From Clostridia bacterium (lineage in GTDB: Bacteria; Bacillota; Clostridia; Christensenellales; Borkfalkiaceae), in NCBI GenBank assembly GCA_021204625.1, contig JAJPZA010000025.1:1-64000 (forward strand): 64,000 nt of DNA, given 5' to 3'. Of this stretch, positions 1 through 45,750 are shown piece by piece. A program made the translations under genes and the position numbers. Each line of letters begins with the position of its first letter. The first letter of the stretch is position 1. The notes under the pieces were generated by a model. That model was not told where the DNA came from. It made no database searches and saw only the letters and a program-made list of their open reading frames with translations.

Positions 1-762
1 GTTTGAGAACCGTGTAATTCCGATGGGGTATCAACCTGAGGCAAAGAAGGTGTCCGAAGCAGATCTGTTTGAGAACCGTGTAATTCCGATGGGGTATCAA
101 CCCACGGCGCGTGGAAACAGGCCCGCATAAGGGTTTGAGAACCGTGTAATTCCGATGGGGTATCAACCACAATGCGTCCAGCTCTTCCATTTATACCTGT
201 TTGAGAACCGTGTAATTCCGATGGGGTATCAACCCGAACACGGCGGCGGAGTACACTAACCAGTGTTTGAGAACCGTGTAATTCCGATGGGGTATCAACC
301 TAAAACAGCGTTCACGGCTCTGCGGCACATGTTTGAGAACCGTGTAATTCCGATGGGGTATCAACCACGTGGACGGCGACAATAAGAACGGTGAGAGTTT
401 GAGAACCGTGTAATTCCGATGGGGTATCAACCTACGTCATGGAGAGCGCTCCGGCGGCATCTGTTTGAGAACCGTGTAATTCCGATGGGGTATCAACCCC
501 ATTCGCAAAATATGCAAGCGTAATGTCTGTTTGAGAACCGTGTAATTCCGATGGGGTATCAACCTCAGAAGAAGAACTTATTGTATCATAAAGGGTTTGA
601 GAACCGTGTAATTCCGATGGGGTATCAACCTTATCAGCCGTTTGCTCAGCAGATTATAGTGTTTGAGAACCGTGTAATTCCGATGGGGTATCAACCGCGT
701 GGTGATGATTTGAATTGGGCATATATGTTTGAGAACCGTGTAATTCCGATGGGGTATCAACC
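1..762 (+). CRISPR. CRISPR array, 12 repeats of GTTTGAGAACCGTGTAATTCCGATGGGGTATCAACC (36 nt), 11 spacers of exactly 30 nt; truncated at window start
   Basis: Identical 36-nt repeats start at 1,67,133,199,265,331,397,463,529,595,661,727 (66-nt period); spacers all differ. 36/30 geometry and GTTTGAGA start are compatible with type II, but no cas genes are in the window. Confidence 0.98.
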
Positions 763-810
763 CTTATTTTCTCAACATATGTGCATTTTAGGACCGTTAG
801 GTTGATACCA

Positions 811-35580: not shown

Positions 35581-35693
35581 GACATATAATCTGGTTATAG
35601 CTGGCACATATACAGCTCTTTTCTCGGCGGCCGGATTTGCCGGTAGGAGGGAACGGAGGCATCTGCGTCATTAAGGGGCGTGCGGAGGGGATT

Positions 35694-36889
35694 ATGTACA
35701 CTATACTGATAGTAATCATAAATCTCACGTTCATAAGCCTGGGGCTCCCGGACACACTGCTTGGCAGCGCGTGGTCTGTAATGTGCGGGGACCTTGCGGT
35801 GCCTCTGTCATATATGGGCATCATAACCATGATAATCTCTGCCGGGACGGTCATATCCAGCCTGTTTGCAGGGGTGGTTGTTAGGAAGGCTGGCACCAGA
35901 GGAGTGGTGGCCATTAGCGTCTTTCTAACCGCTGTGGCTATGTTTGGCTTCGCCTTCTCCGGGGCATTCTGGCACCTGTGCCTGTGGGCAATCCCGTACG
36001 GCTTCGGAGCAGGGGCCATAGACTCCGCCCTCAACAATTACGTGGCCTTGCATTACTCCTCACGGCATATGAGCTGGCTGCACTGCTTCTGGGGAGTGGG
36101 GACCATAATTAGCCCCATCATAATGAGCTGGAGCCTCACCATCTCATCCTGGCACGGCGGGTACTTCATTGTGGCCCTCATACAGTCCGTTATAGTCATT
36201 GTGCTTCTATGCAGCATAAGGCTGTGGAAGGGCAAAAAGAAGCCGGTCGCAGAAGATAAGACGGAAGAGCAGGAAGATCTCAAGCCCAACGGCCTTTTAA
36301 AGGCCATCCGGAGCAAAGGGGCCATTGCGGTGTCTCTTGCTTTCTTTGTATACAGCGCCGTGGAGAGCACGGCAGGATATTGGGCAAGCAGCTATCTCGT
36401 GTCCTTTCGCGGAGTGGAAGTGGAGACAGCGGCCGCGTGCGCCTCGCTGTATTACATAGGCATAACTGTAGGCCGTTTCATATCCGGCTTCATTGCCAAC
36501 AAGATTGGGGACCGCAACTTCGTGCAGATTGGCATAGGAATCAAGGCCGCAGGCCTTGTCCTGCTGTTAATTCCCGTTGGCCCGTTCTACTGCCCTGCGC
36601 AGGACTTGTAATATTAGGCCTTGGAAGCGCGCCCGTATATCCTTGCATCACCCACGAGACCCCGGACAATTTTGGCAGGAAGAACTCACAGTCCATGATA
36701 TCCATCCAGGTTGCCGTGGCCTATGTGGGGACAACCTTCATGCCGCTTCTGTTCGGTTTCATAGCAAACGGCATAAGCATGGGCCTGTACCCTCTGTACA
36801 TGCTGCTCTTTACAGTCCTTCTGCTCCTTTTCATGGAGCTTGTAAACAGGGCATACAGGAAGAGGAAGAGCACGCTGGGGCTGCAATAG
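35694..36889 (+). CDS. MFS transporter, interrupted by an apparent frameshift near 36585-36605
   Basis: Frame 1 (35694-36611) ends ...LLLIPVGPFYCPAQDL*; homologous continuation in another frame CAGLVILGLGSAPVYPCITHETPDNFGRKNSQSMISIQVAVAYVGTTFMPLLFGF... Confidence 0.8.
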
Positions 36890-37052
36890 GGTCTGCAAGA
36901 CTGCATAACCGGCTTGTTTTGCAATTTAAGACTGTAAAGAAAAGAACCTGCCCTGCAATAGTGGACAGGTTTTTGAGTTGTTGGTCTGTATCATGCGGAG
37001 TCAGGTTTTGGCTGTAATGTACGGCTTGTAATTTTCCACAATTCCTCACAAA

Positions 37053-37160
37053 TCATTATTTTTCATAGCTTTTCATAAAGGATTAAAATTCATTATAATC
37101 ACTCATAATTCCTCATAATTTATCATATTTTCTCATAATTGCTCATAATATCTCATAATT
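37053..37160. repeat. Helically phased 10-bp repeat array, consensus NCTCATAATT
   Basis: 37101-37160: ACTCATAATT CCTCATAATT TATCATATTT TCTCATAATT GCTCATAATA TCTCATAATT; TCAT also in the same 10-bp register at 37053, 37063, 37073. Confidence 0.95.
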
Positions 37161-37163
37161 TAA

Positions 37164-37197
37164 TTGACAAATGTAATTTTGTTTTATAAAATTCATG
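37164..37197 (+). promoter_or_regulatory. Candidate sigma-70-type promoter directly downstream of the 10-bp array
   Basis: TTGACA (37164-37169), 17-bp spacer, TAAAAT; ends just upstream of ATG at 37215. Confidence 0.65.
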
Positions 37198-37214
37198 TCA
37201 AAGAGGGCTGAATA

Positions 37215-38582
37215 ATGATAGAATCTGAACAAGTTGAATTAAAGCGGCAGTATGTGGACGATATAAAGAATGAAGCCATTGGCTTTTTGAATACCAATGG
37301 CGGAGCAATTTATGTAGGGATAGATGATGATGGAACCGTAGTGGGAGTCGATAACTGTGAGAAGGTAATGGACCAGGTCAGATCGTCATTGCGCAATTCA
37401 ATCAGTCCTGACTGCGGTCTTTTTGTCACAATCTGCAGTGAGGAGATTGAGGGCAAGAACGTTGTGGTCATCAAAATCAATAAAGGCAGCCGCACACCAT
37501 ATTATATCAAGAGTATAGGACCTAAACCTTCTGGTGTATACATCAGGATTGGTTTTTCTTCAGTGCAGGCCCAGGAAGGTGAGATCCTCAAACTTATATA
37601 CAATAACTTTGTAAGCAATTATGAGACAGAACCTTCATTTGAAACTGATTTGACATTCGTTACATGCGGGAAGGCATTTGAAGAGGAAAAAGTTGATTTT
37701 TCTGATCCTAAAAAAACATCCCTTGGGATGATTAATCCTGTAACCGGAGAATATACAAATCTTGCCTACTTGTTTTCTGATCAATGCAGGTTTTCAATTA
37801 AGTGCACAGTCTTTCAGGGCAGCAATCATTCTGCTGTGCTTGACATGCAGGAGTTTAAAGGTTCTGTTCTTGATCAGATTGAAAATACATTCGCATTCGT
37901 CAAGTTATGCAACAGGAACAGATATGAGATTAAAGATACAAGAAGGATAGATCATTTTGATTACCCTGCGGAAGCTATACGCGAAGCGATAATCAATGCT
38001 GTGGCCCACCGCGAATATGGCATAATGGGTAGCAATTCTGTCAAGGTTTTCAGCGACAGGATAGAAGTTATGTCATTGGGCAACGTTGTTCCCGGCAATA
38101 CGGCTGATTTAATGAAGCATGGCCAGTCCATTCAGCGCAATCCGGGTATATGCAATGTTTTGCACAGACTTCATATGATTGAGGCTTTTGGCACAGGCAT
38201 ACCTAAAATCTTTGACATGTATGAAGAATCCGAGCGCAAACCGGAGCTTCAGTTCCTTAACGGCGGGTTCCTGATTGTTTTGCCAAATCAAAATGCGGAT
38301 TCGACAGATTCAATCCGGCAGGATGATCAGCCCTATAACCATCCGACAGGGCCTTCCGCACGGGCAGATGCCGCATCCAAAGTCAAATCGCGTGATGATA
38401 TATTGCTTGATTATTTGGCCAGTCATGACGGGATTACAAAGGAAGATGCTGCCGGTTTGTTTGCGGTAAAGCCTGCCAGAGCTTATCAGATTCTTGAAGA
38501 AATGAAGGGAACAGCACTTATAGAGAGCAGGAAAGTCGGGAACAGGAAAGTTTATTATCGCAAAACTGAACCGCAAAACTGA
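37215..38582 (+). CDS. Schlafen/AlbA_2-type putative DNA-binding, ATP-binding transcriptional regulator
   Basis: ESEQVELKRQYVDDIKNEAIGFLNTNGGAIYVGIDDDGTVVGV and HREYGIMGSNSVKVFSDRIEVMSLGNVVPG...IEAFGTGIPKI, plus C-terminal wHTH-like region. Confidence 0.88.
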   Translation: MIESEQVELKRQYVDDIKNEAIGFLNTNGGAIYVGIDDDGTVVGVDNCEKVMDQVRSSLRNSISPDCGLFVTICSEEIEGKNVVVIKINKGSRTPYYIKSIGPKPSGVYIRIGFSSVQAQEGEILKLIYNNFVSNYETEPSFETDLTFVTCGKAFEEEKVDFSDPKKTSLGMINPVTGEYTNLAYLFSDQCRFSIKCTVFQGSNHSAVLDMQEFKGSVLDQIENTFAFVKLCNRNRYEIKDTRRIDHFDYPAEAIREAIINAVAHREYGIMGSNSVKVFSDRIEVMSLGNVVPGNTADLMKHGQSIQRNPGICNVLHRLHMIEAFGTGIPKIFDMYEESERKPELQFLNGGFLIVLPNQNADSTDSIRQDDQPYNHPTGPSARADAASKVKSRDDILLDYLASHDGITKEDAAGLFAVKPARAYQILEEMKGTALIESRKVGNRKVYYRKTEPQN

Positions 38583-44976: not shown

Positions 44977-45267
44977 ATGGCAGGCACACTTGTACAATTT
45001 CGTCTTGATAATGAAATGAAAGATGAAGCAGACTATATTTGCAAACAGCTTGGCTTGGATCTTCCATCATATCTTAAGATGTGTGTTTCAAGACTTATAT
45101 CAGAAAATGGTATACCATTCAGTATGAAAAATGTTTATTCTAGTTATGATCTAATGAGCATACTTAGGACAACAAGCCAGATTGCCGCACAAAACGGCAC
45201 GGCCGATATGACGCTGGACGAAATTAATGAGGAAATAGCAGAGGCTAGGAAGGCTAGGTTAAAATAA
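44977..45267 (+). CDS. RelB/DinJ-family antitoxin
   Basis: TLVQFRLDNEMKDEADYICKQLGLDLPSYLKMCVSRLISENGIPF, RHH pattern; AAGGAGG RBS. Confidence 0.85.
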   Translation: MAGTLVQFRLDNEMKDEADYICKQLGLDLPSYLKMCVSRLISENGIPFSMKNVYSSYDLMSILRTTSQIAAQNGTADMTLDEINEEIAEARKARLK

Positions 45268-45270
45268 GAC

Positions 45271-45750
45271 ATGGATAAATATTATGCTGTTATTGATACT
45301 AATGTCATTGTGTCAGCTGTCTTAAAGATGGGGTCTGATTCGATAAGCAATCCTGTGCTTTCATTTGAAGCATTAACAGCTCCGGCAAAAATTATAAATC
45401 TTGTCCAGCGCAATAAGATTGTTCCGATTGTTAGCACGGAAATAATTGCAGAGTATCGAGATGTATTGTCACGTAGCAAGTTCAAATTTCCAGCAACGGT
45501 TGTAACCCAATTCATCAATATCATTCTGGAACATGCAGCATTTGTGTCTCCTGTAAGGCAGGATGTCAAATTGCCTGATCCGAAGGATGCTATCTTCTAT
45601 GAGATAACAATGAGTGCACGAACTGACAGTGATGCTTATCTCGTGACTGGTAATTTAAAAGATTTTCCTATAAAACCATTTATTGTTACCCCTCATCAAA
45701 TGCTTGAAATAATCAATTCAGATGGCGGCAGTTGTTATGTGAATGAATAG
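45271..45750 (+). CDS. PIN-domain toxin (COG1569-like)
   Basis: YYAVIDTNVIVSAVLK, ...VSTEIIAEYRDVLSRSKF, KLPDPKDAIFYEI, TDSDAYLVTGNLKDFP. Confidence 0.9.
   Translation: MDKYYAVIDTNVIVSAVLKMGSDSISNPVLSFEALTAPAKIINLVQRNKIVPIVSTEIIAEYRDVLSRSKFKFPATVVTQFINIILEHAAFVSPVRQDVKLPDPKDAIFYEITMSARTDSDAYLVTGNLKDFPIKPFIVTPHQMLEIINSDGGSCYVNE

What the first reader, a model, noticed from the sequence alone, without database searches (positions are those of the whole stretch)
37053..37200. Helically phased 10-bp TCATAATT repeat array abutting the promoter of a Schlafen/AlbA_2-type regulator
The sequence shows six contiguous 10-bp units (consensus NCTCATAATT, 37101-37160) and further TCAT cores in the same 10-bp register at 37053, 37063 and 37073, ending 3 bp before a TTGACA-17-TAAAAT promoter. 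Exact helical phasing puts every unit on one face of the DNA, which suggests cooperative binding of one protein (perhaps the AlbA_2 product itself) or intrinsic curvature. The unit is too short and regular for a CRISPR or plasmid iteron array.
Basis: partly seen in the sequence, partly recalled or inferred. Interest (0 to 1): 0.75.

Follow-up and report, generated by a model that had tools for sequence, protein, structure and literature searches.

The report
Self-operator array of a Schlafen regulator
A row of 10-letter DNA repeats spaced one helical turn apart sits at the promoter of a bacterial Schlafen-type gene; relatives of this gene carry arrays with other letters but similar spacing, and the letters change together with the protein's DNA-reading domain, so the array is most likely the switch by which the protein controls its own gene.

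Summary
The array is real: six contiguous 10-bp units (consensus NCTCATAATT, 37101-37160), weaker in-register copies back to 37053, then a 3-bp gap and TTGACA-17-TAAAAT. Lag-10 self-similarity scores 44; the best of 1000 shuffles over all lags was 17. The gene 37215-38582 encodes SLFN_AlbA_2, a GHKL ATPase and a C-terminal winged helix.

Homologues do not share TCATAATT. 63% of 79 close homologues have short tandem repeats of their own at the promoter, against 12% of 57 neighbouring-gene controls. Same-strand spacing is mostly 9-12 bp, with a 5-bp class. Unit sequence follows the winged-helix domain (semi-partial r about 0.27, p 0.001-0.003) and not the Schlafen, middle or ATPase domains. DNA curvature is not conserved. 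More distant Schlafen subfamilies lack arrays.

Best explanation: a self-operator, read by the protein's own winged helix one subunit per turn, for autoregulation, more likely repression. No description was found in the searchable literature. No binding has been measured.

The parts
37101..37160 (+). Core array: six contiguous 10-bp units, consensus NCTCATAATT
37051..37100 (+). Degenerate in-register extension: TCAT cores at 37053, 37063, 37073; decayed units at 37083 and 37093
37164..37192 (+). Promoter TTGACA-17-TAAAAT directly downstream of the last unit
37211..37220 (-). Weak inverted unit (TATCATTATT, score 7.8 of 13.9) in the same register, overlapping the start codon; best site in 36890-37240 outside the array
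37215..38582 (+). Gene for a 455-aa SLFN_AlbA_2 / GHKL ATPase / winged-helix protein
37221..37571 (+). SLFN_AlbA_2 domain (aa 3-119); E3 and E8 invariant, align with the catalytic E205/E210 of SLFN13
38037..38279 (+). HATPase_c_4 / GHKL ATPase match (aa 275-355); the N-box E257/N261 lies just upstream
38388..38564 (+). C-terminal winged helix-turn-helix (aa 392-450), the inferred reader of the array
37617..37626 (-). Perfect inverted copy TCTCATAATT inside the gene, the only perfect site in the 64-kb window outside the array; possible auxiliary operator, unproven

Best explanation
The array is a self-operator. The C-terminal winged helix of the adjacent Schlafen-GHKL-winged-helix protein binds each unit; because units lie one helical turn apart, several subunits line up head-to-tail on one face and bind cooperatively, touching the -35 element and so controlling the gene's own transcription, more likely repressing it. 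Each lineage has its own unit sequence, which co-diverges with its winged helix, while roughly one-turn spacing and position at the promoter are kept. Shown by computation: the array, its recurrence with other sequences at homologous promoters, and covariation with the winged helix alone. Inferred: actual binding, cooperativity, the sign of regulation, and the purpose (keeping a potentially toxic RNase scarce until a signal, perhaps through the ATPase domain, releases it).
For: Significant promoter repeats in 63% of 79 close homologues versus 12% of 57 AT-rich neighbouring-gene upstreams, Mann-Whitney p 8e-12. Same-strand spacings at 9, 10, 11, 12 bp: 27, 36, 21, 8 cases; a 5-bp class of 20. 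Unit-motif similarity correlates with winged-helix similarity (rho 0.37; semi-partial 0.27, p 0.001) and not with the other three domains (semi-partial 0.00-0.04, p 0.21-0.46); this holds for five of six settings. In L013, L052 and L055 the upstream array is joined by an inverted copy in the -35/-10 spacer, always 29 bp from the last unit; in other clades the units cover the core promoter. Nearest homologue L011 has CTCATAT units, also inverted in the spacer. The C-terminus folds as a winged helix. Neighbourhoods vary and no partner recurs, so the gene itself is the only constant target.
Against: No binding or expression data. About a third of close homologues have no significant array by this test. 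The window's own promoter lacks a clear inverted copy in the spacer, so repression by occlusion is less certain here and activation is possible. The winged-helix covariation disappears in the 132 most divergent pairs, and homologues are not independent samples. Distant Schlafen subfamilies have a winged helix but no array.
Confidence: 0.76

Rival explanations
1. The array works by intrinsic DNA curvature: phased AATT tracts bend the DNA upstream of the -35 and raise promoter strength without a dedicated protein.
For: The window units contain AATT at 10-bp phase; a wedge model gives the 65-bp array a curvature ratio of 1.14 against 1.03 (sd 0.02) in shuffles.
Against: Over 110 bp the window is only 1.6 sd above shuffles, and only 4 of 33 significant homologue arrays exceed 2 sd; many units (GTTAGAATG, NAATC, CAACTCTTC) have no A-tracts. 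Curvature does not predict covariation with the winged helix. Wedge parameters were recalled from memory.
Confidence: 0.07
2. The array is bound by a different regulator, such as a nucleoid protein or a global repressor, not by the adjacent gene product.
For: No direct binding evidence for the gene product; not every homologue has an array.
Against: Unit sequences change with the winged helix of the same gene; tandem units are unique to this locus in the genome, which a global regulator would not predict.
Confidence: 0.1
3. The array is a positive autoregulation site: bound subunits contact RNA polymerase at the -35 and activate. (This shares the self-operator core of the best explanation and differs only in sign; its confidence overlaps with it.)
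For: In the window the units end 3 bp upstream of the -35 and none overlaps the core promoter strongly, a position typical of activators.
Against: The window promoter is near consensus (11 of 12) and needs little help; in many homologues the units lie over the -35 to start codon or have an inverted copy in the spacer, positions typical of repressors.
Confidence: 0.2
4. A neutral minisatellite made by replication slippage, without function.
For: Unit number varies between homologues (L013 and L055).
Against: Homologues have arrays of unrelated sequence at the same place, with inverted copies that slippage does not make; neighbouring genes mostly lack them; covariation with one protein domain.
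Confidence: 0.03

Closest known systems
Schlafen-family RNase fused to a minimal histidine kinase and wHTH, linked to BREX (PMC12839542, Nucleic Acids Res. 2026, gkag035)
   Same: Same three-part architecture as the window protein.
   Different: The paper treats it as a backup effector RNase, and its main text has no occurrence of operator, direct repeat or autoregulation. No BREX gene was seen beside the window gene.
OmpR/PhoB-type winged-helix regulators on head-to-tail boxes of about 11 bp (own knowledge)
   Same: Winged helices that line up one per helical turn on direct repeats next to a -35.
   Different: No receiver domain; here a Schlafen and a GHKL ATPase domain; the target is apparently only the gene itself and unit sequence differs in each lineage.
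Plasmid partition arrays (ParR/parC, TubR/tubC, omega heptads; own knowledge)
   Same: Short tandem units bound cooperatively, which often also autoregulate.
   Different: Single gene in a long chromosomal-type contig, no ParM/TubZ/ParA partner and no replication gene beside it.
Corynebacterium DIP2311 structure 3lmm and NMR structure 2kyy (RecG-related)
   Same: Best structural relatives of the whole protein and of its N-terminal domain.
   Different: No function or operator is attached to these entries in the results seen.

Membership tests
Schlafen-GHKL-wHTH (COG2865-like) proteins | SLFN_AlbA_2 domain | tested here: met
   Pfam E 1.7e-18; family profile matches SLFN11, 12, 14 structures
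Schlafen-GHKL-wHTH (COG2865-like) proteins | HATPase_c_4 / GHKL ATPase domain | tested here: met
   Pfam E 2.4e-15; E257, N261, G326, G328 invariant; Foldseek histidine-kinase matches
Schlafen-GHKL-wHTH (COG2865-like) proteins | C-terminal winged helix | tested here: met
   H393-403, H409-416, H420-432 and two strands at pLDDT about 80; PapI 2htj Foldseek probability 1.00
Active Schlafen RNase | Two pivotal glutamates (E205, E210 of SLFN13) | tested here: met
   E3 and E8 invariant in 38 sequences and aligned with the Schlafen E-x4-E
Active Schlafen RNase | Third acid (D248 of SLFN13) | tested here: inconclusive
   D38 in the window aligns by position, but homologues have D, N, K or G there
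Active Schlafen RNase | tRNA or rRNA cleavage | not testable with these tools
   needs a biochemical assay
Autoregulatory operator | Site overlaps or abuts the gene's own promoter in homologues | tested here: met
Autoregulatory operator | Site sequence covaries with the DNA-binding domain | tested here: met
   except in the most divergent pairs
Autoregulatory operator | Direct binding and effect on expression | not testable with these tools
   needs gel shift, footprint, reporter
CRISPR array | Repeats of about 23-50 bp with unique spacers | tested here: not met
   10-bp contiguous units without spacers; the CRISPR-like array is at 1-763
Phased A-tract curved promoter | Conserved intrinsic curvature | tested here: not met
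   4 of 33 arrays above 2 sd

The most novel reading that the evidence does not exclude
The array is more than a switch: it is an assembly platform on which the Schlafen-GHKL protein polymerises and is held inactive, so that the operator DNA acts as a built-in antitoxin, and each lineage has privatised its operator sequence to avoid cross-talk between homologues in the same cell.
Probability: 0.1. Interest if true: 0.85.

Novelty: new variant of a known kind. Interest (0 to 1): 0.62.

Why it matters
Close relatives of this Schlafen-GHKL-winged-helix gene are found in about 5% of the order-, class- and phylum-level genomes sampled and this architecture is a proposed antiviral RNase effector, but how it is kept in check is not described in the library searched. 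The finding gives a concrete, sequence-level answer and a natural data set of protein-operator pairs with fast-changing specificity and fixed helical spacing, useful both for decoding winged-helix recognition and for testing how these effectors are released.

Tried and rejected
Searching for TCATAATT itself in 301 family genomes: only scattered degenerate hits, so the unit is not shared. A crude k-mer measure of operator similarity gave a weak signal that did not separate the domains well; motif matrices did. Curvature as the conserved property: rejected. Conserved neighbour as regulated target: none found; some loci have restriction or other defence genes, most do not. Intragenic copies as a general second operator: weak tendency only (mean rank 0.37, composition not excluded), left open. 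Proteins without a winged helix as natural control: only one true case (L064/L068, no array), the others are frameshifts or contig ends. Single-protein scans of viral contigs found nothing; a pattern scan of viral contigs gave no answer twice. Literature on COG2865, AlbA_2 and HATPase_c_4: no paper on such arrays seen.

Full report
OBSERVATION. Six contiguous 10-bp units lie at 37101-37160 (ACTCATAATT, CCTCATAATT, TATCATATTT, TCTCATAATT, GCTCATAATA, TCTCATAATT), with in-register TCAT cores at 37053, 37063 and 37073 and decayed registers at 37083 and 37093. Three bases later comes TTGACA-17-TAAAAT, and the gene starts at 37215. The lag-10 self-alignment score is 44, with 32 and 29 at lags 20 and 30; 1000 dinucleotide-preserving shuffles of 36890-37214 never exceeded 17 at any lag from 5 to 30. 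In the whole genome no other tandem pair of the unit exists within one mismatch.

THE GENE. The 455-aa product has SLFN_AlbA_2 (E 1.7e-18), HATPase_c_4 (E 2.4e-15) and a weak PadR-like C-terminal match. An AlphaFold2 model from a shallow alignment is poor overall (mean pLDDT 64; residues 1-29 and 90-146 mostly below 50), but residues 391-450 are modelled at about 80 as helix-helix-helix-strand-strand, a winged helix. Foldseek hits include PapI (a winged helix) and histidine-kinase ATPase domains; the best overall match is 3lmm. A family profile matches human and animal Schlafens. Glutamates E3 and E8 are invariant in 38 family members and fall on the E-x4-E of Schlafens, whose E205 and E210 in SLFN13 are the pivotal catalytic residues (PMC5862951); the third acid (D248) is less conserved here. 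A 2026 comparative study describes this architecture, Schlafen RNase plus minimal histidine kinase plus wHTH, as widely linked to BREX systems, where it is proposed as a backup suicidal effector (PMC12839542).

HOMOLOGUES HAVE ARRAYS OF THEIR OWN. Homologues were collected from family, order, class and phylum genomes plus plasmid, phage and viral records. None close has TCATAATT arrays, but most have short repeats at their own promoters: TCTCTATTTT-like units upstream of the -35 (L013, L052, L055), CAACTCTTC/CATCTCTTC (L053), GTTAGAATG over the core promoter (L067, L080, L086, L098), TGTATTAGAA (L095), CGATAGAA (L020), TGACAAGAA woven into -35 and -10 (L072), GTGAAaATTCAC palindromes at 20 bp (L014, L090), and 5-bp NAATC arrays (L017, L019, L022). 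Viral contigs L127-L131 show GAGAAAGAAA repeats. Against shuffles, 63% of 79 close homologues are significant at p<=0.05, against 12% of 57 AT-rich upstreams of other genes in the same loci. Same-strand spacings pile up at 9-12 bp (92 cases) and 5 bp (20), with almost none at 6-8 and 13-17. Thus the conserved property is about one helical turn, not exactly 10 bp. Unit number varies at constant phase (five units in L055, three in L013, which share the same N-terminus), and the distance from the last upstream unit to the inverted copy in the -35/-10 spacer is 29 bp in L013, L052 and L055. Distant Schlafen subfamilies (tblastn below 200 bits), many with a winged helix, lack arrays.

WHICH DOMAIN READS THE ARRAY. 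Motif matrices were built from the repeated units of 46 homologues (44 in the repeats of the test). Motif similarity correlates with winged-helix similarity (rho 0.37) more than with Schlafen (0.21), middle (0.19) or ATPase (0.23) similarity. With the other three as covariates, only the winged helix keeps a signal: semi-partial 0.27, permutation p 0.001; the others 0.00-0.04, p 0.21-0.46. Five of six variations of threshold and flank agree; restricted to the 132 most divergent pairs the signal is gone. The window's unit is closest to those of L052 and L011, and its winged helix is closest to L013, L055, L011 and L052. L011, the nearest homologue (45% identity), has CTCATAT units, including an inverted one between -35 and -10.

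MECHANISM. The simplest reading is autoregulation: the protein's winged helices occupy successive units on one face of the DNA, head-to-tail, beside or over the promoter of their own gene. In many homologues the units cover the core promoter or an inverted copy sits in the spacer, which favours repression. In the window the strong sites stop just before the -35; a weak in-register inverted site overlaps the start codon (37211-37220), and one perfect inverted unit lies inside the gene at 37617-37626. Repression by contact or by a loop is therefore possible, but activation is not excluded. Genome neighbourhoods of 20 homologues show no recurring partner, and the sister locus L009 has lost gene and array together, leaving a 30-codon 3' remnant next to the same phosphomannomutase gene, so gene and array were lost as one unit. 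A function in keeping a toxic RNase scarce until needed is inference.

ALTERNATIVES. Curvature: the window array is mildly curved in a wedge model (parameters recalled from memory), but only 4 of 33 arrays exceed 2 sd. A foreign regulator or neutral slippage do not explain the covariation with one domain of the adjacent protein nor the inverted copies.

LIMITS. Start codons of homologues were assigned by rule; sequences are related, and permutation of labels does not remove all effects of the tree; motif finding favoured sequences with strong repeats; promoter elements of homologues were placed by eye; no experiment supports binding. The library searched holds open-access papers only, and the bacterial Schlafen preprint cited by PMC12839542 was not available.

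Noticed in passing
window 37617-37626 (-): The only perfect TCTCATAATT in the 64-kb window outside the array lies inverted inside the Schlafen gene, about 400 bp downstream of its start; across homologues own-motif copies inside the gene score slightly higher than expected.
   Followed up: partly
L009 1500-3100: Sister locus in Clostridia MAG JAJPYR010000048.1: the Schlafen gene and array are gone except 30 codons, and an AAA_14/DUF4143 ATPase gene stands there between two copies of a terminator-like repeat.
   Followed up: partly
window 35637-36889: MFS transporter gene split over two reading frames near 36600, apparently frameshifted.
   Followed up: partly
window 44977-45750: RelB-type antitoxin followed by a PIN-domain toxin gene.
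   Followed up: yes
window 1-763: CRISPR-like array with 36-bp repeats GTTTGAGAACCGTGTAATTCCGATGGGGTATCAACC, cut by the window edge.
   Followed up: no
L120 2459-3808: In Mesomycoplasma hyorhinis the homologue is annotated as two genes, 'ATP-binding protein' and 'DeoR family transcriptional regulator', as if the winged helix were split off.
   Followed up: no
L017 promoter (upstream of L017:1498) and relatives L015, L018, L019, L022, L023, L062: One clade uses 5-bp NAATC arrays, half a helical turn, instead of one-turn units; why is unexplained.
   Followed up: partly
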